From positions 48,622,333 to 48,686,332 of the forward strand of contig OX419756.1 of NCBI GenBank assembly GCA_948567375.1: DNA of 64,000 bases, in the 5' to 3' direction. Position numbers and translations under genes: made by a program. The notes below the pieces were generated by a model. That model was given only the letters and a program-made list of their open reading frames with translations, had not been told where the DNA came from and did no database searches. Within the stretch, counting starts at the first letter, position 1, and every line of letters starts with the position of its first letter. Origin of the DNA: Lunularia cruciata. Its lineage: Eukaryota > Streptophyta > Marchantiopsida > Lunulariales > Lunulariaceae. Of this stretch, positions 18,173 through 40,220 are shown in pieces.

Positions 18173-18597
18173 TGTAACAATATGGAGTTTAGCGATGAAG
18201 TTAGTAGGACTAACAAAGTAGCAAATAAGAAAATTAGCCTAGAATATTCTGGAAGTATTTAGGAAGCTTCTTGGGAAGCTTCCCGGCTAACTTGGCTTGC
18301 ACCTAAAGTAAGTAGTTTCTAGAAGGAAGCTTTTAGAAGCTTCCAACTAGCTTAGCTTGCACGCCAAGTAGGCGACTTCTAGAAGGAAGGTTCTTGAGAA
18401 GCTTCTTGGTTAACTTGGCTTGCACTCTAAGAAAGCGGCTCAAGGAAGCTTCTTGAGAAGTTTCTCAAGGGCCTTGTATGCTAGATATAAATACCAAAGC
18501 TGAAGTTCATGCTAGGCATTCAAAGTTTTCACTCATACTAGCGTCCTAATGTGAGCTTCCATTCTCCTATTTCTCTCCTTGGTCTTGGTCTTTTACA
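18173..18597 (+). repeat. 5' LTR of A1
   Basis: 425 bp from TGTAACAATATGG to TCTTTTACA, followed by a primer site TGGTATTAGAG at 18599 (one base inside; consensus TGGTATCAGAGC of the iMet site). It contains GAAGCTTC palindromes; the four-unit GAA/TTC array at 18326-18343 has one mismatch (TTT for TTC). A TATAAAT box is present near 18487. Confidence 0.9.
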
Positions 18598-18869
18598 TTG
18601 GTATTAGAGTAGGAATGGGATGAATTGAATTTATGGACCACCAAATCCACTTTTGCCAAACCATTGGGATTTTCATGTCTAGATATTACCCAAGCATTGA
18701 TTCATACAATTCATCACCTTGCACTTTGGGCAGGATTTTTTGCATATGATTACCTTGTTTGAGGAACCCTTGATACTTCCGATTGTAACTTATGGAGAAC
18801 GGTGGACATATTGCATCTATGTGTTAATCAATTAGATAAAATTGGGAGTAGTGGGATAGAGTAGTAACT

Positions 18870-19144
18870 ATGGCGGCAATACCGGATGTTATCCTTGCAA
18901 TGTAGAAACAAATCAAGCACCTTATTCGGTTGTTGAATGGATGAGACCAGCAACAACAAGAATAGAAAGAGAGAGCGCCAGTTCAAGATGAAAAAGATCA
19001 TATTCGATTTCCAAAACCCAAGGTGTTTGAAGGTAAGAATCTTCTAGGCATAATGGAGAATTTTGTGTTTGAGTGCGAATGTTACTTTGAAGCCACCAAT
19101 CTTCAAGATGAACAAAAATAGATTCTCTTGGCTTCTAGCCAATT
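18870..19144 (+). pseudogene. A1 gag, 5' part
   Basis: Starts at the same ATG context as the A2 gag (AIPDVILAM), with an early TAG at the codon after AM, and continues through the FPKPKVFEG motif to the ILLAS-like segment, where element C is inserted after CCAATT. The rest of gag resumes at 36848. Confidence 0.8.
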
Positions 19145-19699
19145 TGTCGTGCGTATATACATCACTACACAACATACATCGCTGTCAACATCATACACTA
19201 TAGAAGCACAACTCACACATAAGTCATACATAGACTCTAAAGTGCCACAATAATCAGATTGCTTACCACTCTCAACTCAACTCAACTCAGATCAATACTT
19301 GATCTGTCACTCTATAAACTACAAACAACTGGGCACTGATTACAGTCAAGCCACACCCATTCAAGCATAGAGAATCTAGGTGATGCTTGCCGGCCTCTGT
19401 CCACCATAGCCAAGAACTTGAAGGCTCAACATCAGAGAAGTGAACTCTCTAGAGCTCACTTTGAAACTATACCTCATGGACTTGAGCTAGCTCTGAAACC
19501 CTAACGGTCCCGCTGATGACACACTTGATGGTGCAAATGGTGCAAAGTGACGGTGGGCCTCACCGTGAAGTCAGTACTCTGAACACAAAATCTGACCATC
19601 GGAAAGTAGTCTTTGAGATACTGCTGAAATAACTCTAACTACTATCACTGGAACTCCAGTGTCCAAGCATCTAGATGCGGCACTACAAAAGGCGTGACA
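19145..19699 (-). repeat. 3' LTR region of C (composite)
   Basis: 19250-19699 matches the 5' LTR at 36389-36843 nearly base for base (minus-strand start TGTCACGCC). Beyond it, 19145-19249 is an extra 105-bp block that ends the insertion next to AATT and is itself a near copy of 19701-19807, just inside the LTR. The outermost bases read TGTCGTGCG on the plus strand, so the insertion still ends with TG/CA. Confidence 0.75.
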
Positions 19700-19975
19700 G
19701 CTGTCGTGCGTATATACATCGCTACACAATATCCATCGCTGTCAACATCATACACTATAGAATCAGAACTCACACATAAGTCATACATAGACTCTAAAGT
19801 GCCAAAATCGCCTCCCTTGCTGGCGGTTAGGCCCCTTTAACTCTAGATAGCCATCTATTCTAAGTATATGGTATACCCTCTAATGGGCAAAGATCAAGAG
19901 GCCGGGTGCTATGGAGCCCTATCGTTAGTCGCCTGTCTACAATCTATACCATATAAAGAATGAACTAGCTATAGG
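19700..19975 (-). other. 3' untranslated part of C
   Basis: It contains the second copy of the 105-bp block (19701-19807) next to a purine-rich minus-strand stretch (GCAAGGGAGGCGA, rc of about 19808-19820) that could be the original polypurine tract. No coding sequence downstream of the PHD stop. Confidence 0.5.
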
Positions 19976-20276
19976 TCAAGTACATCTAGGACATAACCAT
20001 TGTCCATGAGGAACCACCGTGAGGGGAGGAGTCATACATGCCATATGCCATCCTCTTGAACATCTATCACACACTAACATAGTAGTAGCTCCACCAAAAG
20101 AGCCACATAACATACACCTCAAGCTTGCATGTACAAGTGCCAAGCTTGGGTCCATAGTACCATCAATGTTTAGGAGGTGGCATGGTGCACAATTGCGCAC
20201 ATGATCCTTCCAAACAACACCATCACGTCCTTCTAACACAAGGACTCCAGATGGCAAAACCTTACGCACTCTCAAG
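19976..20276 (-). CDS. C-terminal PHD finger of element C polyprotein
   Basis: The final segment of the C reading frame. After an integrase tail (VRKVLPSGVLVLEGRDG, HVRNCAPCH) comes a full C4HC3 PHD zinc finger at 20116-19982: Cys-x2-Cys, then Cys-x2-Cys (CDRC), His-x2-Cys (HMAC) after a GW, and a final Cys-x2-Cys (CPRC) preceded by the usual Trp (GQWLCPRC). All eight zinc ligands are present. PHD fingers generally read the N-terminal tail of histone H3, methylated or not at K4. At the end of an integrase it sits where chromoviruses carry a chromodomain, so a role in target-site choice is a reasonable inference. The frame ends with a stop at 19976-19978. Confidence 0.88.
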
Positions 20277-21240
20277 ATAGTGTGGCCTGTAGAAACATCA
20301 AGTGTCGTTGGTGTTGTTTACTGTAGATATACATAGTCGCCTAGATGAAATCGATGGATCAAGGGTCTATAACCTCCTCCTCAAATAGTAGCATAGCGTA
20401 AAGTATCTTCATGCTGAGCAATCGCCAAGTTCTCAAAGGCCATCGGCATCACTCTCCGAAAGATCTCTGCCCATTGAGAACATGCGCTCATCCATACATC
20501 GGGGTCATCCAAGTCCAAAACTACAATAACATCTCAATGAATGGCTAAAGGTAAATCAAGATCTTGTCCATAGAGTAGAAAGTATAGAGAGAAGGATGCT
20601 AAGGAGGCTTGCCGGCTGAATCGATAGCCTATGGCAAACCAAGGTAATTGGAGATCCCAATCACCCAAGTAGCCTCTTTGCAAACCATACTTTTGCAATC
20701 CTCTCTTCACAGTCTGAACCACTCTCTCTGCTAAGCCATATGCCTCAGGGTGATCTTGGGATGTAGTACAATGATCAATCAAAGCCTTGTCACACAAGAC
20801 CTGAAACTCCCCCAAGAACTCTGTACCCTAATCAGTCAAAACCTCAGTTGGTGCACCAAAATGACTAAGAACTCGATCCAGGAACGAGTAAGCTGTCCCT
20901 TCACTAGACTTGTCAGGAAGTGCCACCAACTCAATCCACTTGGAGAAGTGCTCTACCATCACCAAAATATACCAATGATGTCTCACAGTTAGCGATAAAG
21001 GTCCGGCAAAGTCCAAACTCCAACGGTAATCCAATCCCATGATAGGTAATGGGTGTAACTGTGGCATAGGAGCATTGAATGATGCTCTAACTCAATCACA
21101 AACCACACATCTAGCAACAAACTGCTATACCTTGGTCTGCATACCGTGCGCCACCAATAATGACCCTAGAGTAAGCTATATGTACACTTTACTCCAAAAT
21201 GTCCTAGCTCCTTATGAGCATGACGGACCAACTGTGGTCT
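20277..21240 (-). pseudogene. Element C integrase
   Basis: The minus strand shows an HHCC zinc domain (HAHKELGHFG, then CVVC after a frameshift at about 21130), then the DDE core: LDFAGPL with the first Asp, EVLTD followed by TAG and GTEF with the second Asp, and HPEAYGLAERVVQT with the Glu. All three catalytic residues survive. The C-terminal part has FHLGDYVYLQ. Stops at about 20831 (TAG, family DQGTEF), 20537 (TGA) and 20320 (TAA) interrupt it. The core is followed without a chromodomain by the PHD finger. Confidence 0.82.
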
Positions 21241-22982
21241 CTATGTTGGCAGTGGTACTACTCGCACTCTACCATCTTCCCATACACGCAAAAGGTGTCT
21301 GCCCTCCAATCTAAACCGTCTGGCTTGCTGAAGAACATGGTCTCTCTCCTTGGCCCCAACTGTGCCACCAACAACACCAATGCAAAGATAGTCCATCACT
21401 AAGGCATCATCATGAATGTCTTGCTGAACTGTACCAATATCTTCACTCTCTGGATCTATGACCTCAATAACTCCTCCTATATGCGCTGAGAGAGATACCA
21501 CCAAAGCCTCTGCAAATATACACAAAATGGCCGATGCATGCCAACCTGGCACCATCTCCTCATCTGTCTCACCATGCCAACGTGCTCCGGTCTGATCCTG
21601 TTGGCTGGGACACGGGTTTCTACTCAACCCATCTGCATCACAGTTCACCACTCCAAGTCTGTGAACAACCGTGAAATCATACTCTTGTACAATCAAAGCC
21701 CATCGTGCAAGCTTCCATGAAAGCTTGTCGGACTCCATCAACCACTTCAGCGGCTGATGATCAGTGATGAGAGTGAAGGGGTTACCAAATAGGTAACATC
21801 GTAAATGTGCTACTGCCCAAACTGCTGCCAAGCACTCTCCCTCATATGAACTATACTTCACCTCCGCTGAATTGTTGGAGCGACTAGCATAGGCCACCAC
21901 AAACTCCTTCCCCTCATCATCATGTTGGGTGAGCACCGCTCTAAGCCCCAACATACTCCAATCAGTGTGAACCTGAAATGGTCATCCCCTGACTAGTCTC
22001 CTCAAAATAGGAGCAGATGTCAACCTCTCCTTGAGCTCTACCAAAGCTCTCTCCTGCTCATCTCCCCAACATCACTCATGTGTAAGCTTGGTCAGCTTTG
22101 TCAAGACCTTGGCAATGGCACTAAATCCTCTAACATAGCGGTGATAGAAGTTCGCCAACCCAAGGAATGCTCGCACTTTGCTCACATCCATAGGCCAAGG
22201 AATATGTGCAATAGCCTCCACCTTGGTCTGCTAGACACCAAGTCATCCGGGGTAGATAGTGTGACCCAAATACTCAACTTGCTCGTGGAAGAACCTACAC
22301 TTCCCAGGATGTAATTTGAGTCCATGAGATCTCAACCTCTCAAACACCTCCAACAATTGTCTCTCGTGCTCCTCCATAGTAGTGCTATAAACCAAAATGT
22401 CATCAATATAGCACCGAGCAAAATCCAATCCAGCTAGGATCCTATCCATGACCCTCTGGAACTCAGCAAGAGTGTTCTTTAACCCAAATGGTAAGAACCT
22501 CCACTAATATAACACATCCTTGCCATGAGGATCAATAGCCAAAATGCTATCTTGGACTTATCCTCCTCCTTGATCGGCAACCGAAGATATCCCGCTCGAA
22601 GATCCAAAGTACTGAAGATCTTTGCATGCCCAATTGCATCAAAAATCTCCTCCAGTGTAGGCATGGCATACCGATCAACCCTGGTCTATCAATTGATAGG
22701 ATGGTAATCTCCACACATCCGCCTATCTGTATAGTTGCCATGCATATCCTTCTTGGCTGGCATCACTGTCGCTGATGCATACTCTCCATGTGAAATCTCC
22801 ACCAAACCAGCCTCAAAAAGGTCACTACTCCGGCTCTGAATCAATGTCCTCTCCATCTCACTATATCGATAAGGAAGTCGGAAAACTGGTGTGTCATTAG
22901 TAAGCTCAATCCGTACACCCAGTCCCTTTAGAGCACCCAAATCCTTTATACTGAAGGCAAAACAACTTGTGTGACTCCTCAA
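21241..22982 (-). pseudogene. Element C reverse transcriptase and RNase H
   Basis: RT starts with LFEAGLVEISHGEYASATVM and CGDYHPIN, then STLDLRAGYLRLPI, and the catalytic box YIDDILVYS near 22400, intact. The thumb (VRAFLGLANFYHRYV) and RNase H follow: AVLTQHDDEGKEFVVAYASR, SSYEGECLAAVWAVAHLRCYL and LITDHQPLKWL. A 237-codon open frame covers RNase H and the connection to integrase (21954-21241). Frameshifts occur near 22465 and upstream; stops are TGA and TAG. The RT converts element RNA to cDNA and RNase H removes the RNA strand. The RT resembles Ty3/gypsy; I cannot assign the clade. Confidence 0.85.
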
Positions 22983-23410
22983 GAACCTCCAAACCCTTCG
23001 TCTTTCCTCTCCAATAAGCTTGGGTCCAAGATTTGGCTCCCAAGTATCCTCTGTAACTATAGTAAGAGTGGAAGACGTACTGATTGACTGCTACACTGGG
23101 CCCTTGGGAGCAATAGTGTCATGCTCCCGCCCACTAGAGGTCCCAACCTCTGTGTGAAAAACTCCCTCCACTCTGGCTGCAAGCTCCACATGTCCTATGG
23201 CTGCATCCCATGTGGACCAAGGGTGTAATCCAAGTAGCCCATGCTCACCTGGATGGACTCTAAGTAGACCACTCTCCCTAGTAGCTACTGGATGTGTCCC
23301 AAGAATACCATGTCCACTTGGTCCATCGCCCTCAGCATGTGCCTAAATCGTCTTGATAGGGTGATGCCTATCAAGCGCATCATATGCTGCTCTGCCAAGC
23401 CAAGGCTCAC
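22983..23410 (-). other. Element C spacer between methyltransferase and RT
   Basis: A reading frame broken by stops and at least one frameshift. I see no domain motif. It probably contains a linker and the RT N-terminal extension. Confidence 0.4.
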
Positions 23411-24358
23411 AATCCAGGTCAAACAATTCAGGTCCATAACCTGACCTAACACTTGACGCCTGGATGCCTTTAACACTGCTGGAACAGCGGTAATACCGGT
23501 ATGAAAACCCATCGCCCACTCTCTCTCATCAGCGTTGGGCTCCACCAACTGCTATAAATGTGAGTCCTAAACAAGTCCAGGTCCTCCCTCTCAAAAAGCA
23601 TGAGAGCCTGGGAAACTCATGAGTGTGGGAAATGCAGCTCTAGGCTGTCCAACTAGGTTCACCACTGCCATAAGTGACCTATCAGCGACTACCACTATCT
23701 AAGACTGATGCCTAACATCCAAGATATCATCAACAAGGATGTGGTCAAGTCGCTGAATCCCATCATAAGCGCGCTGTAGAACCTCTCTGGGTAAGAGGTT
23801 TGTCCACCAAAGATGAAGACAATGAGCCTGTGATCCCACTCTAGTTGCATCTAACAATACAGCAGGTCCTATCCAAGAATGGACCTGATGTGTACTCACC
23901 ACCACTTGAGTGCGAGAATCATCCATCAAAGGAATGTTCTCCAAAAGGTAAGCTGGAGAACCAGATTGATGAACCTGGAGATGTTGTAGTATCTGTAACA
24001 TCTCCCAAAACACACCAAAATGAGGATCCTAAAGACCCAAACCGTGGCCCGCACATGTATGTCCCTGACATGGCCATCCAAAAATCACCAAGTGAATAGG
24101 CCCATGTCTCTCTAGGTCATGCGCCCCCAATAAGGAAATGTCTCCTGTTAGGGCTTTCTGGTAACCTTTGACTGCTGACATCGGTAATAACTCCGGATAC
24201 CAATAGGCCAAGTATGCCACATGATGTAGAGAAACTTGCCTAGCAGTCTCATCTCTCTCTACATACAAGTACCTCTGTACTTGGATACCCTCATGTAACA
24301 CCACAGCTAGTCCGGTGTTGATCCCACCAAACAACTCCAATAGGCATATCCCCTCTAT
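23411..24358 (-). pseudogene. C5 cytosine DNA methyltransferase domain of element C
   Basis: The minus strand encodes the conserved C5-methyltransferase motifs in canonical, unpermuted order: motif I ELFGGINTG (about 24337-24311, S-adenosylmethionine binding), motif II YVERDETAR, motif IV GWPCQGHTCAG with the catalytic Cys of PCQ (24073-24065), motif VI ENI (23938-23930), a VLLDATRVGSQAH...WWTNL segment (motif VIII region, about 23860-23800), and a motif IX/X region with RRQVLGQVMDLNCLTW (about 23460-23411). All are in one frame, broken by TAG at about 24026 and 23696 and a few others. The GPAVLLDA...WWTNL block recalls DNMT3-type enzymes more than DNMT1 or the rearranged plant DRMs; that is inference. 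It lies between protease and RT, so it is part of pol and not a separate gene. Confidence 0.85.
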
Positions 24359-24748
24359 TGGATACTACCAAGCAATGAGTGTGGTATCCAAAGGTGTCAA
24401 AGCAATCGCCTCTGGAGGCTCATCCTCACACTCATCTCCTGATGGTACAAAGGCTCCACTCCAAGCCTGCTGCACCAACTGATCTGCATGATGTTGCAAT
24501 GCCTCCTCTGAACTCCACAATGGAACATCCAAGGTGGATAGAACAATCCTACTCGTACTCCAAAGCCGAGTTATCTCCTCTGGTACTAGATTATCCTCTG
24601 CATAGACGTTCCCCTCCAACAAGTCACCAGGCCAAGTAATCGCACCATTGAAAGCTAAAATTGATGCTGCCATGGTCTCAGACTGTAGTGAGCCAAGACT
24701 GCCACTACTAAAGCGTATTGGTAGGCGATATACCCATCCCTCACCAGA
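24359..24748 (-). pseudogene. Element C linker between protease and methyltransferase, unknown domain
   Basis: A 102-codon open stretch (24673-24365) in the same frame as protease and methyltransferase, bounded by TAG codons. It is acidic and Trp-containing (PSGDECEDEPPEAIALTP near its end). I do not recognise any family. Confidence 0.45.
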
Positions 24749-25417
24749 CTACCAACCAGGTCTATAAGAGGTTGTCTCCTCCCAATAGTCAATGCTAAAA
24801 CCCATGAGGTATAACACTGCTCCCCCAATTAGCACATCATATGACTCAGCTATTGTTGCAATAGCTTGAGCTCTCACCACCGAATTATCAGTCGTATGAC
24901 CAGACTGAACCTGGACAACAAGCTCTCCACATGTGATGTACTGTGTCAAACCACCACCTACAGATGTCTGGATCTGAAATGGACACCTCTCCTCATCGGT
25001 CTTTTGTAACTCCAGACAGACAACTGCATCCTTCCCCAACATAAGGGGCTGCGCACCAGAGTCTAACAAGACTCTCTATGGTGTATAGATCTTTCCTGAA
25101 GGTCCCACCAAACAAAAAATCCCTCTTTGGTTATCCAATAGGACAACACCATGTGTAAATCGTGCTCTCTCAAAGGCCGGTCTAGCTGGCAACTCCTCGA
25201 GTCTAGTCGCTGCTGCCTGCCATAAACCACTGGTCGCTGAACGGATCCCATGCTCCTCAAGCAAGTTAGCTCCACTACCAACCACCTCTACTCTAGTAGT
25301 AGGAACTGCACCATCCCTACTCTCACACAACGTGGCAGCCAACCGGAATACTGGGGCTAGGTCAACTCCCAATGTAAACATATCACTAGCCAAAAACAAA
25401 AGATGCCGCATAATCAG
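24749..25417 (-). pseudogene. Element C aspartic protease
   Basis: The catalytic motif LLDSGAQPLMLGKD lies at about 25072-25031, followed by a flap-like region and AESYDVLIGGAVLYLMGF near 24850-24800, matching the retropepsin fold (DSGA and a hydrophobic-hydrophobic-G motif). The 111-codon open stretch upstream (25411-25076) is a pre-protease region in the same frame, separated by a TAG. The enzyme would cleave the gag-pol polyprotein in the particle. Confidence 0.72.
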
Positions 25418-25861
25418 CTAAGCCGCCCTCAACATCATGCTAGACTCAGTCTGTGTAGTAGCACGTGGCTGACTAGCAGGTAGTCCATCATGTAATCCAT
25501 CACCACCTACCACACCTGCACTGGGACATCTAGGAACCATGGATGTTGTCTGCAATGCCTCAGATAGCGTGAAAGATTGGGGAAGTCTGACCTGTCTCCC
25601 AACCTCTCCTCTCTGTGGGTCCAACTCCACTGATGCTCCTCTAGACTCTGGAGCACATACTGCACTCCTAGTCACTACTGCAGATGCATCCACCTGTGCT
25701 GCTCCGCACATGAAGTCCAAAGCATCTCTATCACTAGCATATGAGGTGGAAGCCTCAGCACCCGAATCTGATCTCCTCTGAGCAATAGCCATACTAGCCA
25801 ATCTCTGCTCCAACAGCTCAATCCGAGTAGCCATAGCTGTGTCAGAAGTAAGGGCAAGTAC
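25418..25861 (-). pseudogene. Element C gag C-terminal part, 3' of the B insertion
   Basis: Continues the gag frame from 33690 once B and one GTAC copy are removed: the frame runs from the Gly/Arg-rich tail after the zinc knuckles into a short helical segment (RIELLEQRLASMAIAQ) and then a low-complexity Ser/Thr/Arg linker up to a TAG at 25418. No enzyme motif. Confidence 0.65.
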
Positions 25862-26553
25862 TATAACACTCATTTGTGCATGTGTATGGTATTGTGATAT
25901 TTAGCTTGGTATTACAAGTACTTAAGAGATATTATTTATATAGAGATAAAGGATGGTTCTATATTAGTCATGGTTAGCTAAAGTTAGTCATAGCTAAGAT
26001 AGAGGGGACCTTACTTTAGAGGAAGTAGAAAAGATGAGCACCACTATTTTGGATTTTAGTGTGTTGACTTGGTATTATTCCTAGGTGTTTGGCTTTGAGG
26101 AAAGAGTTGAGAACTCTTGGGCCCACAAGCCTTTTTGTTTTGGATTCTTCTTTAGTCCAAGGATAGCCCATGTGAAGGAATCCTTGACTTAGTGGTTGGG
26201 TCAAGATAAGACCACATGCTTAGGGGAATATGCCCATGTGAATAGATATTCCTTTCTACTTTTTGACTTTATTTGACTTTTAGTCTAGTAACTTGAGTTA
26301 CTATGGTAATTAGTAACTTTGGTACGTAACTATTTCACAAGTATATAAACAAGGGGTGAGGAGGTACTCATCATCCTTTCATTTGCAACTATCTCTCTCT
26401 CATTGAGTTCTCTAGTGAGCAATGTCTTGAGTCTTGGAGTGTTAGCCTTGGAGGAGTATGATGGAGTTGGGGCTCCTTGCCTTCTTAGTCCATGGTGCGC
26501 TACCATAATAGCCATCAGAGGTTCATCCTGAGTGAGAGACATGCCAACTCACA
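25862..26553 (+). repeat. 5' LTR of B
   Basis: Starts TATAACACTC (the 3' LTR has TGTAACACTC, so the terminal G mutated) and ends CTCACA. A TATATAAA box at 26342-26349 is the probable core promoter. The same LTR occurs as solo or partial copies at 233-588 and 2948-3644. Confidence 0.93.
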
Positions 26554-26557
26554 TTTT

Positions 26558-26576
26558 TGGTTCCGTTGCCGGGACC
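26558..26576 (+). promoter_or_regulatory. Primer binding site of B
   Basis: TGGTTCCGTTGCCGGGACC begins four bases after the LTR. It resembles the TGGCGCCGTTGCCGGGG-type site of plant Tat-lineage elements, pairing with a tRNA 3' end (CCA complement TGG). The tRNA identity is not determined here. Confidence 0.6.
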
Positions 26577-26759
26577 TTTCTAGAAGGCAAGGTAATGTTC
26601 CGCGTTCAATTCTACATTAGGCAGAAGGAGGCTATGAGAGCTCACTTGGAGAGAACATTAGGAGAGGAGAGGGCTGAACTTATGTTAGAGAACCAAGATC
26701 CATTTGTATACCATGTAGTTCATTATGATGTCTTTGAGGTGATTTTATAAATCTTGTAC

Positions 26760-27889
26760 ACATGAGAGGAATTGGAGAGATTGTGTGAGGTGGATTGCAG
26801 ATTTTGGGGATTAAGGTGATTTTGGGCAAAATCTCAAGTTTAAGATTTGGACTTGAGATTTCTACACATGATAGCTTGGGTTATCTTCCAGTTAGCACAC
26901 TTAAAATTATTGTGAGAGCTTCTATGCGCACTGGGCTAGAATTTTTGAAAGTTGATAGGGTAAAGTGCTCCCGCAACTGCATGCTCTTTGGAAAATTGTA
27001 TAGAGTTTTCCATTTCTTCAATTTTCATTGAATTGTCCTAAAAATTTCCAAGAAAATTCAGTGGATTGTATCCTACCTGTTGCCACAAAAATTAGAGAGA
27101 GATCGTTCTTGCGCAGGGAGTTATGAGTTTTTGAAGTGAAGGGGGTGGTTTTAAGACCAAATCTGAAATATGGGTGCTGAATAGAAAGGTGTCTAGGCCA
27201 AATGGCTTGATGAAAAGATCTGAAATTTTGCAGGGAGTTAAGCCCTAGAGTTGTGATTAAGTGTGCTAAATTTCAGAGGACTATGACATACTGGTTAGGA
27301 TATTTGAGTGACATTGTGAAGAAGGGTCAATTCTGCAAAGTGGAGATCTCATGCATGAGGAGTTTGAGATCAACAAAAAGCATGTTTGAGTGTTTAGATT
27401 CATTTTGGGAACATGGAGGGCCATCAAGAGTGGAAATTGAGATGATGCAAGGTTCCCCAAGGGTTTGAGGTGATTGAAGGGGTGGATTTGAGGAAAAGAG
27501 AGTTTACAATAGAATTTGAAGAGAGTGTTTAGAGGATCCAAAAACCTACACCACTTGGAGGAAAGAGTGAGTCTAAGTGCTTTTTGTGTGGAGAGAAGGG
27601 ACATAAGGCAAGTTCATGTCCATTGACCTTTGAGAGCAAGAGATTGAGAGAAAGGAGAGGCTTACTGGACTTGGGTTTACATATTGGATCTTCTTCACCA
27701 AGATTGGGAGGAAGAAGATCTAAGACCAAGGAGTTGTGTGAGCTTTGTGGAGTTGAAGGACTTCCAAAAGGACATGAGTGTAGTAGAGTAAAATCAATTT
27801 TGGAGACTTTGGTGAAGGATCTTGGAGAGAGTCTTAGTATAGCTACAGAAATACTACCACCTTCATCAACTAGTTCTCAAGATTAGTGA
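26760..27889 (+). pseudogene. B extra ORF upstream of gag with zinc knuckle
   Basis: Between primer site and gag there is degraded coding-like sequence, with open stretches at 26795-27031 and 27584-27886. In the frame running into the second there is a VDLRKREFTIEFEES segment, one stop, then a perfect CX2CX4HX4C knuckle (CFLCGEKGHKASSC, about 27560-27605) and a second Cys/His cluster (CELCGVEGLPKGHEC) about 50 residues later. Upstream ORFs of unknown role are known from Ogre/Tat elements, but none of those that I recall has this knuckle pair. Function unknown; nucleic-acid binding is likely from the knuckle. Confidence 0.55.
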
Positions 27890-28119
27890 TGGAGATAATC
27901 TTTCAACTTATGGATAAACTATCCATGAGAGTTAGATTAATATGCACTCTAGGATTTGATGTTGCTATAGAAATCTTGGAGCAACCTGAACCTTTTGTGT
28001 TCCCTAGAGTGGATTATTCTCAGATGGTGTTAGTCATGTATATACTCTATTAGTAATAGAGTGAGAGAAAAGAAAAGAGAAGAAAAAATTGAGAGAAAGA
28101 AAGATAGTGAGAGGTTAAG

Positions 28120-29730
28120 ATGGGGAAAATTCCGGTTTTCTTTGGCAAGGATGGAGAAGATGTGGAGGCCTTTGTGAGAGACTTCAAGAGAGCTTGCATA
28201 GGAAACAATGAGAGGAGGAAGAATGAGTGGGCCTCATTATTACCAGATTTCTTTCAGGATGTAGCACTTACATGGTATGAGTCAGAATACCAAAAGAGAG
28301 AGAGGAGAGATGGGGAAGAAGAGTTTTGGGAGACTTTGACTTCAGCACTCATTGAGAACTTTCTTCTTGATGAGAGTTATGAGAGATTGATGAGTGAGGT
28401 TACATTTCTCAAGCAAGGAGATGGAGAGAAAGTGAGAGTCTATGTGGAAAGAGTAGAAAAGTTAGAGTTCAGATTTCACATAGTGTTGAGGAAGGGTGGG
28501 GATGATGTGGAGACTACAATGATTGGCAAAGGGGCCATGCTTACCAAGAATTTTGTGGGAGAGTTGAGACCACAAATTAGAAGCAAGGTGAGATATGAGA
28601 AACCTTCTTCCAAGGTTGAAGCTATCAAGATCGCAATTCGTATGGAGGAGAGTTTGGAAGGGGATGAGAGTGATTTGGTAGTGAAGGAGGTTGTGCATCC
28701 TCCTCAAGGCTACAAGTATGGTGGAACTTTTGATACTTTGGTGACAAGGGTTGCACCACAAGTAGTAGTTGCTCCAGTTCTTGCACCTCTACCAAAAGAT
28801 CCACTCCAAACCATCACAGAACAACTTGCCGATCTCAAGATCAATGTGGTGCAACTATGGGAGAAGAGAGAGGTGGATCATAATGTAGGGAGAGGGCCTA
28901 GGAGTTATGGAAACTATCCATATAGAGGAGGCCAACCAGCCAACAATTTCAATGATAGAAATTGTTTTGGTTGTGGAGGAAGAGGCCATATCCAAAGGAA
29001 TTGCCCAAATTCCACTTACCATGGAGGAAGGGGTTATGAGGGAGCCAATAGAGGGAAAGAGGGAGGTAGTGAAACCCAAGTGGCTCCTAATCCCAACAAA
29101 GGTAAGGGGATAACATCCATAGATGTGGTTGAGAGCAAGTATGAGAAAGGAGAGTGCTCAAACTCCAAGGGTCTTAATTTGGAGCTTTTGGCACAAGAGA
29201 AGAAGAGAGCTTGTTTTGCAGAGGATGTTCACTCTTCTCAAGGATTTACTCCAAGCAAGGATACTCCTATGTCTACTAGGAGCACTCGTATCTCAACACC
29301 ATCAACAACAAAGACTCCAAGGAAGAAGTTGGGGATGGAGGACTTCTTGATCTCAAAGCAACAATGGAACTACAATGTGTTGGAGGATGTTGGTAGTCAC
29401 AAGGCTAACATCACAATGGGCCAATTAATTGCTTTGAACCCTACCTTGAGAAAGGAGCTTAGAGGTGGTTTGAGTTCTACAAGGAGCAAGAGGAAGAAGA
29501 AGGCAAAAGTTTCGGTATCAATGGAGGTGGTGGATGCCAAGCCTGCACCATGGGAGGCTTGTGAATATGCCTCCAAGATTGATGTGAGAGTGAATGGTCA
29601 CAACATCAAGGATGCATTGGTTGATGGAGGATCAGCAGTGAATGCTATGTCAGAAAGGTTGATGAAGAAGTTGGGTATGATACCCTCAAGACCTTCAACA
29701 TTTGTGGTGAGCATGGCAAACAAGCAATAA
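28120..29730 (+). CDS. B gag with zinc knuckle and start of protease
   Basis: An open frame of 536 codons from an ATG preceded by an A/G-rich leader. The N-terminal half is the capsid-like Retrotrans_gag domain (WASLLPDFFQDVALTWYESE, FLLDESYERLMSEV). A CCHC knuckle CFGCGGRGHIQRNC lies near residues 285-298. The C-terminal part is the beginning of an aspartic protease with DALVDGGSAVNAMS near residue 500; the active-site triplet is D-G-G instead of D-S/T-G. The frame stops at TAA (probably CAA) but continues in the same phase, so gag and pol were one polyprotein. Confidence 0.85.
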   Translation: MGKIPVFFGKDGEDVEAFVRDFKRACIGNNERRKNEWASLLPDFFQDVALTWYESEYQKRERRDGEEEFWETLTSALIENFLLDESYERLMSEVTFLKQGDGEKVRVYVERVEKLEFRFHIVLRKGGDDVETTMIGKGAMLTKNFVGELRPQIRSKVRYEKPSSKVEAIKIAIRMEESLEGDESDLVVKEVVHPPQGYKYGGTFDTLVTRVAPQVVVAPVLAPLPKDPLQTITEQLADLKINVVQLWEKREVDHNVGRGPRSYGNYPYRGGQPANNFNDRNCFGCGGRGHIQRNCPNSTYHGGRGYEGANRGKEGGSETQVAPNPNKGKGITSIDVVESKYEKGECSNSKGLNLELLAQEKKRACFAEDVHSSQGFTPSKDTPMSTRSTRISTPSTTKTPRKKLGMEDFLISKQQWNYNVLEDVGSHKANITMGQLIALNPTLRKELRGGLSSTRSKRKKKAKVSVSMEVVDAKPAPWEACEYASKIDVRVNGHNIKDALVDGGSAVNAMSERLMKKLGMIPSRPSTFVVSMANKQ

Positions 29731-31914
29731 GTTCAACCAGTAGGGGTGATGGATAAAGTGGTAGTTTCAGTTATGGGAGTTCAAAATCTCATGACTTTCC
29801 AAGTCTTGAAGGATTCAAGCTATGACTTACTTCTTGGGAGGCCATGGTTGAGAGCAGCACGCACAACTGATTGATGGCACAAAGGGTACTTGAGGATTGG
29901 GCCATCAAACCATAGAGTCACTGTTCATGTGACTAACACCACCAACACTTCACATTCAGATACACCATCTTCTGATTATTAGGAATCAGATTCTGAAGAA
30001 GGAGCTTCAGGTGTGGACACAAGCATGGAGGAGGAGACTTCCACGGAGGAGGATGAATCTGAATCTGATTCAGATGTATATCCCTTGTGTGCTATGGATT
30101 TTGCACCTAAGCCAGAGGTTTTGAAGGACCCAAACAAATCACCATTGACACTTGAGGAGGTAGAGAGAAGGTTAGCTACCCTCAAGTATGGCCCAAATGT
30201 TACCAAGGAGGAGAAGGTGAGATTTGAGGAGATTTTCCGCAAGTTCATCAATGTGTTTGCTTTTAGTTACAAGGATTTGAAGGAAGTCACCTTGGAGGAG
30301 CACAAGATAGAGGTGGAGTCACATGCAAGACCAATCCGCCAAAAGCAACGTAGCATTAGCCCACCAATATCTTTGGTTGTGAAGGAGGAGATTGATAAGC
30401 TCAAGGAGGCCGGATTTATCTTTGAGGTGGAGAATTCAAAATGGGTGTCTCCAATTGTCATTGTGAAGAAAAAGAATGGCAAGCATTGGGTATGTGTGGA
30501 TTACAAGAAGCTCAATGCTGTTACCAAGAAGGACTACTACCCATTGCCGTTCATTGATGAGATCTTGGAGGAGGTTGCAAGTCATGAGAGGTACAGTTTT
30601 GGAGATGGTTATAGTGGATACAACCAAATCAAGATTGCACCAGAGCATCAACAACTCACCACGTTCATTACACCTTGGGGAACTTATGCTTTCAAGGTCA
30701 TGCCTTTTGGGCTTTGCAATGCTCCAGCCACATTCCAACGGTTCATGAACAAGGTATTTGAACCTTTCATTGGGAAATTTGTGAGAGACTTCATTGATGA
30801 CTTTTGTGTCTATGGGAGCAAGGAAGAGCACTTTGAGCACATAATCAAAGTTTTGCAACACTTGGATGAGGCAAATGCATCACTCAACCCAGAGAAGTGC
30901 ATTTTTGGATGTGAAGAAGGTCTACTTTTGGGGCACATCATCTCCAAGGATGGAATAGCAGTTGATCCTGAGAAGGTGAGGAAAATCTCAGACCTTCCAT
31001 TCTCTTCAAGCTTGACAAAGTTACGTCAATTCTTGGGGATGGTTGGATACTATAGGAGGTTCATCTTCTCATTTTCCAACAAAGCTTATGCATTGACCAT
31101 CTACATGAAGAACGGTGTAGATTACATGGTGATTTTGGAGGACAAGGAGGCTCTCAAAGCTTTTGAGGAGCTCAAGCAAACCCTTGTTGTAGCTCCAATT
31201 CTTGCTAAACCTGATTGGAGTAAGCCTTTCATCCTCTACATTGATACTTCTAATGTAGCTATAGAATGCACTCTTAGTCAATTAGACCAAGATGGGCATG
31301 ATCATCCAATAGCTTATGCTAGTAGGCAGATGGTTTCAGTAGAGAAGAACTACTCTGTCACGGAGAGAGAAGGGTTGGCAGTGATCTTTGGTCTCAAAAA
31401 GTTTAGACACTTCTTGATTGGAGGGAAAGCCACGATTGTCACGGATCACAAGGGTTTGAAGTACAACTTCAACAAGCCTAATGTTGAAGGGAGACTAGCA
31501 AGGTGGATGATACTCTTATCTGAGTATGACTACACCATTGAGGATAGGCCAGGAAAGAAACATGCAAATGCTGATTTGTTATCAAGAGCCTATGATCATG
31601 ATGGAGATGAGCCAGTGGATGATTCCTTCCCGGATGAGGAGCTCATGACAATCTCAGTCACTCAAGAGGTTCCAATGGAGTACAAGGAGATTGTAGATTT
31701 TATGACAAGAGGTAACTATCCAGAAGGGATGCATGCTAGGGAGTGGAAGGCCCTTGCAGCAAGATCTAGACCTTACACAATGGTGGAGGATATTCTTTTT
31801 CATCAAGGAGCAAATGGTCTACTTCGAAGAGCAGTGGGTAAGGAAGAGTCTATCCTATTCATAAAGGAGTTTCATGAAGGTTTAGTATGTGGAGGACACT
31901 TTGTAGGAAGGTGA
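29731..31914 (+). pseudogene. B protease end, reverse transcriptase and RNase H
   Basis: After the rest of protease (SSYDLLLGRPWL) and an acidic Ser/Glu/Asp linker, an open frame of 633 codons (30013-31914) carries RT: SKWVSPIVIVKKKNG, YKKLNAVTKKDYYPLPF, MPFGLCNAPATFQRFMN, and the catalytic box FIDDFCVYG (F/YxDD, intact), then FLGMVGYYRRFI. RNase H follows with FILYIDTSNVAI, YSVTEREGLAVIFGLKKFRHFL and TDHKGLKY. It ends near the integrase HHCC start at a single-base frameshift (about 31910). Stops at 29872 (TGA) and 29981 (TAG) precede the long frame. Confidence 0.85.
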
Positions 31915-32945
31915 CTACTTTCAAGATTCTAGATGCAGGTTACCATTGGAGAGGGATTTTCAAGGATTGTCTTGATTATTGCAAAACTTGTCATGTTTAT
32001 CAAGCTTTTGCTAGAAAGTCTACATCCACTCCACCACTTAGATCAATTCCATTACTAGGACCTTTTGAGAAGTGGAGAATTGATTTTGTAGGTCCTCTCA
32101 ATAGAACCCCAAGGAACAATCTGTACATTGTGGTAGTTACTAATTACCTTACCAAGTGGGTTGAGGCTAGACCATTGAGGGACAAGAATGAAGATGAAGT
32201 GGGTAGATTTCTTTATGAACACATTATCACTAGGTTTGGATGCCCTTTGGAGTTGGTTTCTGATAGAGGAGGAGAGTTTACAGGAAGCATTACTACAGCC
32301 ATGCTATGACATTTCTCTATCACCCATAGAGTAACTACATCCTATAAGCCAAATTCCAATGGCTTTGCAGAGAGAACCAATCAGACCTTGTGCATGATGT
32401 TGGCCAAAGATGCAGAAATGGAAGGGGCTAAACATCATTGGGACAAGAGGATTCATGCAGTTTTGTGGGAGTATAGTACAACTATGAAAACTTCCACTGG
32501 ATATTCTCCATTTCAATTGGTGTATGGTATTGAGTCTACCTTACCTATTCACTTTGATCTTCCTACCTTCCAAAGCATTCATAGGAGATTGAAGAAAGCA
32601 CAAGGAGGTGATGCAAAGAAGTCAAGGAAGGATCAACTCATGGAGTTGGAAGAGGCAAGAGCAATTGCTATGGTTTGAGTGGAGCTAGCCCAAAGGAAAA
32701 AAAAGGAGAGCTATGACAAGAGGCAAGGCAAGGAGAAGGTGGAGACTTTAAAAGAAGGTGATTGGGTAATGTTGTTTGATTCCATTTGATTCAAGAGAGT
32801 GCAAAAGAAGTTTTTGCCTAAGTACTTTGGACCTTTCATAGTGGAGAAGGTGTGGGGCAATTACACCTATGATCTCAAGGAGTTGGGAGGAAGACACTTT
32901 GATAGGATTAACCATGATAAGTTGAAGATGTACCATAGAAGTTAG
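31887..32945 (+). pseudogene. B integrase
   Basis: The CxxC of the zinc domain (CKTCHVYQ), then the core with WRIDFVGPL (first Asp), LVSDRGGEFTGS (second Asp), a TGA/stop near 32307, and SNGFAERTNQTL (Glu). All DDE residues are visible. The C-terminal domain has EGDWVMLFD and KYFGPFIVEKV (GPF motif) and ends at 32943 with no chromodomain, which places B outside the chromoviruses. Confidence 0.8.
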
Positions 32946-32993
32946 AGAGACCTTCACTTTGAGGACAAAGTGAAAACTTAGTCCGGGGGTAAA

Positions 32994-33685
32994 TGTAACA
33001 CTCATTTGTGCATGTGTATGGTATTGTGATATTTAGCTTGGTATTACAAGTACTTAAGAGATATTATTTATATAGAGATAAAGGATGGTTCTATATTAGT
33101 CATGGTTAGCTAAAGTTAGTCATAGCTAAGATAGAGGGGACCTTACTTTAGAGGAAGTAGAAAAGATGAGCACCACTATTTTGGATTTTAGTGTGTTGAC
33201 TTGGTATTATTCCTAGGTGTTTGGCTTTGAGGAAAGAGTTGAGAACTCTTGGGCCCGCAAGCCTTTTTGTTTTGGATTCTTCTTTAGTCCAAGGATAGCC
33301 CATGTGAAGGAATCCTTGACTTAGTGGTTGGGTCAAGATAAGACCACATGCTTAGGGGAATATGCCCATGTGAATAGATATTCCTTTCTACTTTTTGACT
33401 TTATTTGACTTTTAGTCTAGTAACTTGAGTTACTACGGTAATTAGTAACTTTGGTACGTAACTATTTCACAAGTATATAAACAAGGGGTGAGGAAGTACT
33501 CATCATCCTTTCATTTGCAACTATCTCTCTCTCATTGAGTTCTCTAGTGAGCAATGTCTTGAGTCTTGGAGTGTTAGCCTTGGAGGAGTATGATGGAGTT
33601 GGGGCTCCTTGCCTTCTTAGTCCATGGTGCGCTACCATAATAGCCATCAGAGGTTCATCCTGAGTGAGAGACAGGCCGGCTCACA
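32994..33685 (+). repeat. 3' LTR of B
   Basis: 692 bp from TGTAACACTC to GGCTCACA, preceded by a short G-rich tract (GTCCGGGGGTAAA) acting as polypurine tract. Nearly identical to the 5' LTR; most differences are transitions. Confidence 0.93.
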
Positions 33686-33689
33686 GTAC

Positions 33690-35125
33690 TGCACCCCTAC
33701 TAGGTGTAGATCCTCTACCACCACCTCTACCACCTCATTCTCCATGAACTGGAGCTCCTCTACTACCAGCCATAGCAACCCTACCACTCTGTAACTCCGG
33801 GTGTAGGTCAAAACACCAATCACTAGTGTGACCAAATCTATGGCAATGCTCACACTGCCTCTGTGCTGGCTGTGATGCACACGAGGTATCAGGTCCACTG
33901 CCTTGAGTACACTCTCTCCGATGGTGAGGTCCACCACAAGTCCAACAAGCAACACCACCACTCATTGGCTATTGCTGACCTGAAAATGAGGGTAAGGGTC
34001 TAACTCCACTAGGCCCTCCACTCGCTCCATAGGATCTGGACTGTCCACCTTGTCCTCAAAAATCAACTAGGCATGGTGCACTCTGCTGCACTCTAGAAGA
34101 AGTCACAACCGTGGATGAGGTCTCCTTATCAAATGCAGATGTCACCACCCTCTCCTCTACCATGTTGAGCTCAATACGCTCAGCCAAACCAAAGACCACT
34201 GCCAAAGTAGGCAAAGTAGCATGTAACAACGTAGCATCACAAACTCTATGTTGCAACTCCTTGTCCAATATTCCATACCAAAACAAGATTGCCTAGGCCT
34301 CGGTAACTCCTTGAGTGAAACTGATCAGCTGTCTCATGCGAGTGTATGCCTTGCATTGGCTCTCTCTAGCCTTCTGCTGGAACTCCTGCAAGCTCCTCAG
34401 CTTGTCAATCCGCACTCCCTGGTAGTTCTGCCTCAAACACAAGAAGAACTCCACCATGGGGTTAAACCCGATACCACACCACCTCCTGCAGCGGTGCCTC
34501 CACCCGTAGTAGCACTATCTCAAGCTAGTGCACCTCCACTAGCTCCACCCACACTACTCTAGCTAGAACTCATAGGTACAACCGATCTACTCCTGGCCAC
34601 CGAGCCTGAAGTGATGGAGACATAGTGTGGAGACCAATACTGTCTCCATAACTCAATCTCCTCCAAATGAGCTCTCCTGAACTCATGGTAGTCATCCATT
34701 GGTGGATCCTCCAGATGCTAAAACAACCCCTTCCATGCCATGAAGGGTGTGAACAAAGTCGGGTTCCGCATCTACTGCAGATCACACCAACTATTAAACT
34801 CCTGGATGAAGTCATCCAACTCAATGGTACCCACTGTACCAAAGTAACACCTAGGGCCTTTGGAGGCCCCATAAATCTTGTCCATGTCCCACAACAACGG
34901 TGCGGACACACCAAGTGCACTCTCAACTAAATCAACTCCTGTGTAGAACTCAAACTCAGAGTCAATCTCCTCCCTCATTGGGACTTGAGATATAGGCTGA
35001 AACTGAGCACCACTCTGAGTAAACCCATTGTGTACTACAATGCTAACTCCTCTAGAATCTCCAAAGAACTCCGTCGTGACAAAGTAACCACAACAGTAAA
35101 CCCGAACCACCAACTGCAACCGCAA
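33690..35125 (-). pseudogene. Element C gag, N-terminal and zinc-knuckle part
   Basis: The minus-strand frame, broken by TAG and TGA stops, includes a gag core (FNPMVEFFLCLRQNYQGVRI, LRSLQEFQQKARESQ, FWYGILDKELQHRVC) and then two zinc knuckles close together: CWTCGGPHHRREC (C-x2-C-x3-H-x4-C) and CEHCHRFGHTSDWC (CX2CX4HX4C) at about 33950-33850. A Gly/Arg-rich tail follows to the B insertion point. Gag forms the particle and binds element RNA. The start codon is uncertain; the open stretch 35125-34772 is the N-terminal portion. Confidence 0.75.
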
Positions 35126-36388
35126 GTTGCAATCGCAAGTACCCCACCAAGTGCCAACACCAACTAAGCACCACCCACTAATGTAACTCTAACCGAGATA
35201 ACTACACTAGGGGAAAGGGCAACCTATAACCTACCATCATAACACGCACTCTCACGGTCTGTAGGTCATCACTTCTTGTCTCACCGGAGAGAAACAAAGA
35301 TAGTATGACTGTTCATCACTCTAGCCTCACCATCGAGAGCACACTAGAGCACCAACGCTCAAAAGTCAGGGCACCTCACACAAACGTGGTGCACAAACAG
35401 GAAGAAGAGAATGGAGGGGGTCTAATCACAAGAAATCTAAACGAAAACCCTCTATCTCATAACACAACACGGGACTTACTCTGCCACCATTTGGCATTTG
35501 ACATAAGAGAAGTTCGTATCTAAGTTCTAAGCTACTAGGATCACCAAGAATGGGATCAAACTGCCTCTCCTTGCCAAAGCTACATGTGTATAGATAATAG
35601 TGGCACAGTCACTAGGACAACAAGTGAGGGTGGACGAGTTGCTAGGGCACAAGTCTAGGAACAAGAGATCTAGGGATCAAACCGTGTTGCGCACAATCTA
35701 GCAGGAAAGGCAGATTTTGCCAACCAATGACCAAGATCTACTCTAAACTAGCTAGCCTCACGCCAGCAAGTTGGCTTGCTGCCCTTTTAGGCCTTCGTAG
35801 CCTCTCATAGCCCACAGCCCTATGCCTCGAAGCCTTTAAATGCCGAAATTCAGCCAAATGAGGCCTTTCTTGTTGCCACTTTGAACCTCCTCCAAAATTG
35901 GTGAAACTTCTCCAAATTTGCAAAAGTCCTCCAAACTAGTGAAACTCCTCCAAATCTGGCCAAAATCTAACATAAATCCCAACCAAAATCTGACATAAAC
36001 CGTAAAGTTGGCTATTTGCCGCTAACTTTCCACTCGAGCCAAATTGACAACATTGGTTTTTCCAAATCACAAATTCATGAGAATAGCTTCCCAACTCCAC
36101 CTTCAATTTGACTTTCTGAGCCCAACTCATAGCAAATTGGTCCTGCCTTCACCTTCTGAGCTCAAAATCACAACCACTGCTCAAAATTTGCTCCTTCTTT
36201 GCTCAAAATTTGGCCAACACTTCCGCACACCGTTTGCCTAACTGCCAAATTTGCATCAATCAAATGAGCTTCTACACACTAGGGAAACACTAAACTTGAA
36301 TCGAGCTACCAACAATCCACCAAGCTTGGAGATACCACCAACACTCAAAGTTCTTGCACCCAATTTCCTCCTGATTTTGCTTCTCTGA
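35126..36388 (-). other. 5' leader of element C
   Basis: About 1.26 kb without a convincing reading frame between the 5' LTR and gag. It contains diverged short repeats of a CCTCCAAAATTGGTGAAACTT type (about 35890-35960). A possible decayed primer site (minus-strand ATCAGAGAAGC) touches the LTR end near 36378-36388, recalling the TATCAGAGC part of the iMet site, but the TGG is missing. Confidence 0.5.
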
Positions 36389-36843
36389 TGTAATCAGATT
36401 GCTTACCACTCTCAACTCAACTCAACTCAACTTAGATCAATACTTGATCTATCACTCTATAAACTGCCAACAACTGGGCATTGATTACAGTCAAGCCACA
36501 CCCACTCAAGCATAGAGAATCTAGGTGATGCTTGCCGGCCTCTGTCCACCATAGCTAGGAACTCGAAGGCTCAACATCAAAGAAGTGAGCTCTCTAGAGC
36601 TCACTTTGAAACTATACCCCCTGGACTCAAGCTAGCTCTGAAACCCTAATGGTCCCGCTGACGGCACACTTGATGGTTCAAACGGTGCAAAGTGATGGTG
36701 TACTCCACCGTGAAGTCAATACTCTGAACACAAAATCTGACCGTCGAAAGTAGTCTCTGAGATATTGCTAAAATAACTCTAACTACTATCCCTGGAACTC
36801 TAGTGTCTGAGCATCTAGATCCGGCACTACAAATGGCATGACA
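36389..36843 (-). repeat. 5' LTR of C
   Basis: 455 bp; on the minus strand it begins TGTCATGCC and ends CTGATTACA. It matches 19250-19699. It carries tandem CTCAA repeats near 36412-36432. The 105-bp block that flanks the 3' copy is absent here. Confidence 0.85.
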
Positions 36844-36847
36844 AATT

Positions 36848-37505
36848 GGATGATGTCGCAAAACTTTGGTGGCAATTCTGAGTGGAGCGAGTTGAACAAC
36901 AAGATTGTTGCACCAATTTTGACATGGGCAGAATTCAAGGATGCAATACTTGGTCAATTTCAAACTATAAATACCACCCAAGCCGTAGAGATAAATTGGC
37001 AGAGTTGAAGCCGATTGGTTCAATAAGGATCTACATCACACAATTTTAGAACATTATTATGCAAATTCTAGATATACAAGAAGGTGAAGTTTTGGATTGA
37101 TTTGTGCGGGGATTGAAGTCACAAAGAAAATTAGAGGTGACTATGTGAGAACCACAAAACATAAAAGAAGCCATGTAATTGGCTGAGCGCTTTGGTTCCT
37201 TTGGTTGTGACAACTTGGTCTAAACCTCAACCTACACAAAGCTTACCAGTACACTACACACGGATGGAAGAACCAACACCAATGGAGATTGATGCTATCC
37301 AATGGAGACCACTTGGTACAATGGATAGAGAAAGATTGTGATAAAATGGAGGTTGTTTTTATTATCACCAAGTTGGACATTGCATTGCTGAATGTCTATT
37401 GAGGAATAAGTGACCTCAACAAGTTGCCCAGATGGAGTTTGTGGAACAGAATGATTAGGGAAATGAGGAATCCCAATAGGAGATTTTGAGCTGCCTATTG
37501 GGAGC
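36848..37505 (+). pseudogene. A1 gag, 3' part with zinc knuckle
   Basis: Resumes the A gag after the AATT duplication: an LWWQF-like motif, TWAEFKDAIL, and a region corresponding to LEVTxREPQNxxEAM. The zinc knuckle region near 37345-37400 is readable as a CCHC remnant with a Cys lost. Numerous TGA/TAA stops. Confidence 0.75.
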
Positions 37506-40215: not shown

Positions 40216-40220
40216 GAAGC

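What the first reader, a model, noticed from the sequence alone, without database searches (positions are those of the whole stretch)
23411..24358. A Ty3/gypsy retrotransposon carries a C5 DNA methyltransferase between protease and RT
The minus strand of element C encodes motifs I (FGGxNTG), II, IV (PCQ), VI (ENI), a motif VIII region and motif X (RRxVLGxxxDxNxLxW) of C5 cytosine methyltransferases, in the reading frame of gag-protease and directly upstream of RT. Retrotransposon-borne C5 methyltransferases have been reported in dinoflagellates and charophyte algae (de Mendoza and colleagues, 2018, from memory), but not to my knowledge as a routine part of a Ty3/gypsy element beside a plant NIH-type gene. 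It suggests an element that can methylate its own or host DNA, perhaps to hide, to repress competitors, or to lower the harm it does to the host.
Basis: partly seen in the sequence, partly recalled or inferred. Interest (0 to 1): 0.93.

Follow-up and report, generated by a model that had tools for sequence, protein, structure and literature searches.

The report
Jumping gene carrying a DNA methylase
A very abundant jumping gene in this plant-like genome carries its own DNA-methylating enzyme and a histone-reading finger, so the element may mark its own DNA, something so far reported mainly from algae.

Summary
Confirmed, and larger than claimed. Minus strand 24352-23390 encodes a DNMT3-like C5 methyltransferase domain, in the protease frame, upstream of RT, inside a Ty3/gypsy element (36843-19145) that a younger LTR element has split. 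This copy is dead: five stops in the DNMT, motif VIII lost. It is not a lone transduction: one DNMT 32-mer has 1,221 exact matches (reversed control 0). Of the 124 best-scoring copies 74 are stop-free through the domain; of 34 sampled otherwise, only 8. Relatives occur in Marchantia, Sphagnum, a Scenedesmus and metagenomes; 45 sampled element DNMTs lie on one side of a 100% branch.

DNMT-carrying Gypsy was known from K. nitens (de Mendoza 2018): a new variant of a known kind. Self-methylation of cDNA is the likeliest role but inferred. Inserted copies show CG and CHG decay, so they are not hidden.

The parts
19145..36843 (-). Whole Ty3/gypsy element C (minus strand), split by a nested element at 25864-33685
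   Evidence: Repeat A pair, repeat B pair, 4-bp target duplication AATT at both ends
36391..36843 (-). 5' terminal repeat A (starts TGTCA)
   Evidence: 90.7% identical over 454 columns to 19252-19699
33735..33968 (-). Gag zinc-knuckle region (two CCHC-like knuckles)
   Evidence: ORF translation, read by eye; similar residues in copy L014; no Pfam match
24749..25075 (-). Protease region (LLDSGAQ)
   Evidence: Same frame as the DNMT; no Pfam match in the window piece; relative P0014 matches Asp_protease_2 at 1.7e-4, under its cut-off
23390..24352 (-). DNMT3-like C5 DNA methyltransferase domain, decayed in this copy
   Evidence: PF00145 4e-5; DNMT3A 3.3e-11 for copy L014; 5 stops here
23091..23093 (-). 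In-frame TAG followed by CAGTCA (type I leaky-stop context)
   Evidence: 35 of 35 matched rows carry TAG-CAG; at least 498 of 514 genome matches carry TAG
22243..23090 (-). Reverse transcriptase, frameshifted in this copy
   Evidence: RVT_1 6.6e-21 for 22243-22503
21241..21981 (-). RNase H
   Evidence: RT_RNaseH 1.9e-33
20534..21091 (-). Integrase core (rve)
   Evidence: rve 1.2e-7, 32.3 bits, just under the cut-off of 32.6, for 20828-21091; 1.2e-12 in copy L014
19982..20116 (-). C-terminal PHD finger after integrase
   Evidence: PF00628 5.7e-11; zinc ligands 100% in 118 family PHDs
19702..19808 (-). Internal repeat B1, followed by a GC spacer (19700-19701)
   Evidence: 94% to 19145-19251; GC in 16 of 17 matched rows
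19252..19699 (-). 3' repeat A2
19145..19251 (-). 3' terminal repeat B2 (ends CGACA)
25864..33685 (+). Nested younger Ty3/gypsy element that splits element C; no methyltransferase match in its two long frames
   Evidence: LTRs 25864-26553 and 32996-33685, 99.1% over 690 nt; gag and RT Pfam matches

Best explanation
SHOWN: the window holds an old dead copy of a highly amplified Ty3/gypsy family with the order Gag-PR-DNMT-[UAG]-RT-RNaseH-IN-PHD and termini A...B-nn-A-B. INFERRED: termination at the UAG gives abundant Gag-PR-DNMT, and occasional type I readthrough gives the full polyprotein. The DNMT is therefore loaded into the virus-like particle at about Gag level, where it methylates the element's own cDNA at cytosines, CG most likely, before or during integration. 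The PHD finger on integrase reads the histone H3 tail and steers insertion. The new copy arrives carrying a mark that the host's maintenance enzymes copy, so it is quiet in most tissue, which limits harm and helps the family reach high copy number. The internal B-GC-A block is the joined right and left end plus two bases; it probably templates complete ends that integrase then trims by two bases.
For: Family-wide: 1,221 exact 32-mers against 0 in the reversed control; 74 of the 124 best-scoring copies stop-free over the domain. Catalytic Cys kept in 160 of 164 relatives (the other 4 are gaps) and in 34 of 34 own copies. DNMT 73% identical to the best Marchantia protein (P0001) while its middle Gag and PR-DNMT linker are near 50%. 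UAG at the DNMT/RT junction in at least 498 of 514 matches, in the CARYYA context that PMC5382211 describes as type I readthrough (passages). PHD zinc ligands invariant in 118. B-A-B block complete in 4 of 4 other copies whose 3' ends were fetched; 4-bp duplications in 3 of 4 copies with both ends read. Some retrotransposon DNMTs methylate CG de novo in yeast (SymbioDIRS-Dnmt3, PMC5890265).
Against: No activity, expression, particle or methylome data here. In the yeast assay of PMC5890265 the K. nitens Gypsy enzyme showed no activity, which the authors call inconclusive. Inserted copies show CG and CHG decay, which host silencing explains without any self-methylation. In a sample of 34 copies picked by their PF00145 match only 8 have no stop in the DNMT, fewer than for PR (21 of 32), RT (13 of 33) or PHD (27 of 31). 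Motif VIII arginines are kept in only 27 and 28 of 34 own copies, and the Pro of PCQ in only 58% of distant relatives. Within-genome selection is weak: DNMT N/S 126/59 for singletons, 44/16 for doubletons, 51/37 for shared variants. The UAG context and repeat order could not be read in other species' DNA. L010 has only a 76-nt 5' A match; L013 shows no matching duplication.
Confidence: 0.5

Rival explanations
1. Chance transduction: one element copied a host methyltransferase once and the domain is a passenger.
For: The window copy is decayed.
Against: More than 1,200 copies, open frames up to 1448 aa, and relatives in Marchantia, Sphagnum and a green alga with catalytic residues kept.
Confidence: 0.02
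2. The enzyme acts mainly in trans on host or competitor DNA, altering chromatin rather than its own cDNA.
For: Expression as a Gag-side product would make much protein (inferred); PMC5890265 discusses host effects in Symbiodinium.
Against: No methylome was examined here; Gag fusion favours the particle over the nucleus (inference); the K. nitens methylome resembles that of land plants (PMC5890265).
Confidence: 0.15
3. The domain no longer needs catalysis: it works as a nucleic-acid binding part of Gag, or methylates RNA as DNMT2 does.
For: PMC5890265 saw no DNA methylation by the K. nitens Gypsy enzyme in yeast; the authors raise RNA methylation for LINE enzymes.
Against: Among 164 relatives the catalytic Cys, the motif VI Glu and the second motif VIII Arg are 100% where a residue is aligned; the best solved match is DNMT3A (3.3e-11), not DNMT2 (0.021).
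Confidence: 0.2
4. Independent captures: the DNMT-before-RT lineage (bryophytes) and the DNMT-after-RT lineage (algae) each took a DNMT from their hosts.
For: The domain sits in two different places in Pol; K. nitens was called an independent acquisition (PMC5890265).
Against: All 45 element DNMTs in the tree lie on one side of a 100% branch from host DNMT3, DRM and other DNMT3-like enzymes (quick tree, midpoint root); their RTs also group, 95%, against only three outgroup RTs from this window; IN and PHD are shared.
Confidence: 0.15

Closest known systems
KnitGypsy-Dnmt3, Klebsormidium nitens (de Mendoza 2018, PMC5890265)
   Same: Gypsy element with a non-rearranged Dnmt3-type domain in its polyprotein; DIRS-like order of repeats with Gypsy domain composition (Fig. 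4 legend).
   Different: Here more than a thousand copies in a land-plant-like genome, a PHD finger after integrase, and a UAG between DNMT and RT; the main text has no occurrence of 'PHD'. K. nitens letters were not available, so kinship by sequence is untested.
SymbioDIRS-Dnmt3 and SymbioLINE-Dnmt (Symbiodinium)
   Same: Retrotransposon-borne C5 methyltransferase.
   Different: DIRS with tyrosine recombinase, or LINE; not Ty3/gypsy with DDE integrase.
Chromoviruses (Ty3/gypsy with an integrase chromodomain)
   Same: A histone-reader module behind integrase (chromodomain role recalled).
   Different: PHD finger instead of chromodomain, plus DNMT and split repeats.
Orchid Ty3/gypsy with an m6A demethylase (PMC9289625, search listing only)
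   Same: Nucleic-acid modifying enzyme fixed in plant Ty3/gypsy elements.
   Different: Demethylase of RNA, not a DNA methyltransferase.
DIRS/PAT elements
   Same: A-coding-B-A-B split direct repeats (order as given in PMC5890265).
   Different: Integrase of the rve type and 4-bp target duplications in 3 of 4 copies, not tyrosine recombinase.

Membership tests
Ty3/gypsy LTR retrotransposons | PR-RT-RNaseH-IN order with DDE integrase | tested here: met
   RVT_1, RT_RNaseH, H2C2, rve in that order in copy L014; protease upstream by motif only
Ty3/gypsy LTR retrotransposons | Two complete direct LTRs | tested here: not met
   5' has A only, 3' has B-nn-A-B
Ty3/gypsy LTR retrotransposons | Short target duplication, TG...CA ends | tested here: met
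   4 bp in 3 of 4 copies with both ends read (window AATT, L011 CATA, L014 GAGG; L013 CTTA against ATCA, no duplication); TGTCA...ACA ends
KnitGypsy-Dnmt3 type | Dnmt3-type domain in the Gypsy polyprotein and DIRS-like repeats | tested here: met
   definition from PMC5890265
KnitGypsy-Dnmt3 type | Sequence kinship with the K. nitens element | not tested
   No K. nitens element appeared by name in the listed hits
DNMT3 | Motif order I to X not rearranged; best match DNMT3 | tested here: met
DNMT3 | Nests inside eukaryotic DNMT3 in a tree | tested here: inconclusive
   Element DNMTs form a separate side of a 100% branch; DNMT1, CMT, DNMT5 and DNMT6 not sampled
DRM | Rearranged motif order | tested here: not met
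   Order I-IV-VI-VIII-X; the host gene at L002 is rearranged (by eye)
Type I leaky stop | UAG CARYYA | tested here: met
   33 of 35 rows fit; definition from PMC5382211
Type I leaky stop | Measured readthrough | not testable with these tools
   Needs a reporter assay
DIRS/PAT | Tyrosine recombinase | tested here: not met
   rve integrase; no recombinase family among the Pfam matches of the two frames of L014

The most novel reading that the evidence does not exclude
A single retroelement lineage spread through green algae and bryophytes couples a DNA-methylation writer, made at Gag level by a leaky stop, with a histone reader on integrase. It pre-marks its own cDNA, and it uses split repeats whose internal junction encodes the joined ends, so DIRS-like replication feeds a DDE integrase.
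Probability: 0.3. Interest if true: 0.88.

Novelty: new variant of a known kind. Interest (0 to 1): 0.72.

Why it matters
A 2019 opinion paper states that transposon-encoded methylases are absent from land plants such as tracheophytes (PMC6338049, passages). Here one such family exceeds a thousand copies in a land-plant-like genome (host not named), and its proteins are annotated in Marchantia polymorpha, a laboratory model. That makes an open question testable: why would a parasite carry the enzyme of its own silencing? The Gag-side placement and the PHD finger turn that into a concrete model, and the two positions of the domain in Pol, in one DNMT clade, suggest an old acquisition followed by relocation rather than repeated capture.

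Tried and rejected
Single-copy transduction: rejected. DRM origin: rejected by motif order and weak DRM2 match. Hiding from methylation: not supported, because copies decay by C>T at CG 9.0%, CHG 5.9%, CHH 1.0% per site (copies chosen by score, commonest base taken as ancestral).

dN/dS inside the genome: copies are too young and methylation-decayed for a clear answer. N/S falls from singletons to shared variants in PR, DNMT, RT and RNase H, but rises in integrase (77/33 to 33/11), hardly falls in the post-DNMT spacer, and DNMT doubletons (44/16) show no fall. Cross-species dN/dS could not be run without foreign DNA. A scan of viral contigs with P0014 matched 12 stretches, none a relative. Rfam: nothing at gathering score in 18000-37500. 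Genome counts for RT and PHD 32-mers did not complete, so the share of copies lacking DNMT is unknown. Primer binding site and polypurine tract were not tested systematically.

Literature: ten searches in an open-licence library. No title or abstract start listed there names a DNMT-carrying Gypsy element in a bryophyte; several listings were capped (15 of 104, 15 of 33, 20 of 300, 20 of 23). Subscription papers are not held, so priority is not proven. PMC12344493 (passages) mentions DNMT3 in LTR Copia and DIRS elements, as reported in 2018.

Full report
What is there. The window lies in an unnamed 566-Mb genome. On its minus strand, 36843-19145 is one Ty3/gypsy element, split by a nested plus-strand gypsy element at 25864-33685 whose LTRs are 99.1% identical over 690 nt. 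In the minus-strand frame 24364-23285, continuous with the protease-side frame, the motifs of a C5 methyltransferase are readable in the order I-IV-VI-VIII-X (motif names recalled). Pfam gives DNA_methylase at 4e-5, above its cut-off, with X at each stop. RT, RNase H and integrase follow, and then a PHD finger at 5.7e-11. Integrase in the window scores 32.3 bits against a cut-off of 32.6; it is clear in copy L014.

Not a lone copy. PF00145 in the whole genome gave 123 scored matches out of 2,161 candidates; a few are host genes: L001 reads as a canonical DNMT3, L002 as a rearranged DRM, L003 as CMT-like (naming by eye). A DNMT-domain query gave 124 scored out of 13,310 candidates, each covering 320 or 321 of 321 residues at 95-100% identity; 74 of 124 have no stop (counted by eye). 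Those are the best-scoring copies. In 34 copies picked instead by their PF00145 match, only 8 have no stop over the domain, against 21 of 32 for protease, 13 of 33 for RT, 14 of 33 for integrase and 27 of 31 for the short PHD. One exact DNMT 32-mer occurs 1,221 times, 0 in the reversed control. Repeat A pairs are 90.7% identical in the window copy, 97.4% in L011 and 99.1% in L014: the window copy is old, others young.

Leaky stop. In copies such as L013 and L014 the Gag-PR-DNMT frame (up to 1428 aa in others) ends at one stop, and RT-IN-PHD (1037 aa) goes on in the same frame. A flank search, which did not specify the stop, matched 35 rows (33 distinct places, as L005/L036 and L007/L037 are pairs): all TAG-CAG, 33 of 35 fitting CARYYA. 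At least two further family copies (L028, L034) were not matched. Genome-wide, 514 sites match with any codon there and at least 498 are TAG; among the places listed two read otherwise, both TAA. These are exact-match sites, fewer than the copies. UAG CARYYA is the type I readthrough signal of plant viruses (PMC5382211, passages). So the methyltransferase lies on the Gag side. This placement is read from sequence; readthrough itself is inferred. Young copies share the stop by descent, so this shows the state of the active lineage rather than long conservation. Whether Marchantia keeps the UAG could not be read; of its annotated proteins P0001 and P0002 end after the DNMT, while P0004, P0006, P0009 and P0012 run into RT in the gene models.

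Termini. The order is A-coding-B-A-B. B is 107 nt; between internal B and A lie two bases, GC in 16 of 17 matched rows and AC in one (14 distinct places); a further copy (L052) reads GT there. The B-A-B block is complete in all four other copies whose 3' ends were fetched (L047-L049; L052). Of four copies with both ends read, three have 4-bp duplications (AATT, CATA, GAGG) and one (L013/L052) has none (CTTA against ATCA). L010 shows only 76 nt of 5' A. The internal B-GC-A block looks like joined ends with two extra bases, as if the ends before integrase trimming were encoded inside; that reading is inference. PMC5890265 reports the same repeat order for KnitGypsy-Dnmt3 (Fig. 4 legend).

Family beyond this genome. 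The first protein search gave 52 proteins: Marchantia polymorpha 59-73% in the DNMT, Sphagnum fallax 49% (a gappy gene model), metagenomic proteins 31-69%. The second gave 177 (120 listed), including 'pol' of Scenedesmus sp. PABB004. Among the 164 collected, 82 read RT-DNMT-IN-PHD, and 7 show DNMT before RT (4 DNMT-RT, 3 DNMT-RT-IN); the other 75 are partial or in other orders. So the domain occupies two places in Pol. The catalytic Cys is present in 160 of 164, the rest gaps; the Pro of PCQ is only 58% (Glu 33%) in these relatives; motif VIII arginines survive in 27 and 28 of 34 own copies. PHD zinc ligands are 100% in 118. In a 68-row quick tree (SH-aLRT, midpoint root) all 45 element DNMTs are one side of a 100% branch from host DNMT3, DRM and other DNMT3-like rows; the group with the bryophyte rows and the RT-first group each have 91% support. 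Two distant DNMT-first proteins (P0049, P0052; long branches) sit with the RT-first side at 87%, so the domain may have moved more than once. RTs group at 95% against three other gypsy RTs of this window.

Selection. Against Marchantia P0001 the DNMT is 73% identical, protease 64%, middle Gag and linker about 50%; RT pieces of four other Marchantia proteins are 68-85%. So the domain is constrained. Within the genome the signal is weak: N/S of singletons against shared variants is 2.14 to 1.38 for DNMT, 2.34 to 1.12 for RT, but 2.33 to 3.0 for IN. Recurrent C-to-T decay blurs it.

Mechanism. The model is a particle-loaded DNMT that methylates the element's own cDNA, with the PHD finger steering integrase. 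De Mendoza and colleagues proposed cDNA methylation and showed CG activity for SymbioDIRS enzymes but not for the K. nitens Gypsy enzyme, which they call inconclusive. Against hiding: C>T differences per site are 9.0% at CG, 5.9% at CHG and 1.0% at CHH, the pattern expected of silenced plant elements (recalled).

Novelty. A Gypsy element with DNMT3 was known. In the main text of PMC5890265 'PHD' and 'fern' have no occurrence. Ten searches of an open-licence library listed no bryophyte case by title or abstract start (calls in Tried and rejected). The finding is a new variant with testable new features.

Noticed in passing
window 25864-33685 (+): Young Ty3/gypsy element, no methyltransferase match in its two long frames, nested inside element C; LTRs 99.1% identical over 690 nt.
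   Followed up: partly
   Followed up: no
window 36850-44900: Another gypsy-like element present as repeated blocks, mostly 81-94% identical; some frames open.
   Followed up: no
L044 (G000:C7:31985500-31993000): The host has a canonical DNMT3 gene in at least two exon frames, best listed relatives an EukProt transcript and Sphagnum, beside a DRM (L045) and a CMT-like gene (L046).
   Followed up: partly
L013 5' flank: The flank reads like the DNMT region of another copy of the family (self-nesting, by eye).
   Followed up: no
P0013-P0017, P0019-P0021: A DNMT-first group about 50% identical from metagenomes of unknown host; the six sampled group beside the bryophyte rows.
   Followed up: partly
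P0025-P0164: Very diverse RT-DNMT-IN-PHD elements in green algae and environmental data, several named 'site-specific DNA-cytosine methylase' by their source.
   Followed up: partly
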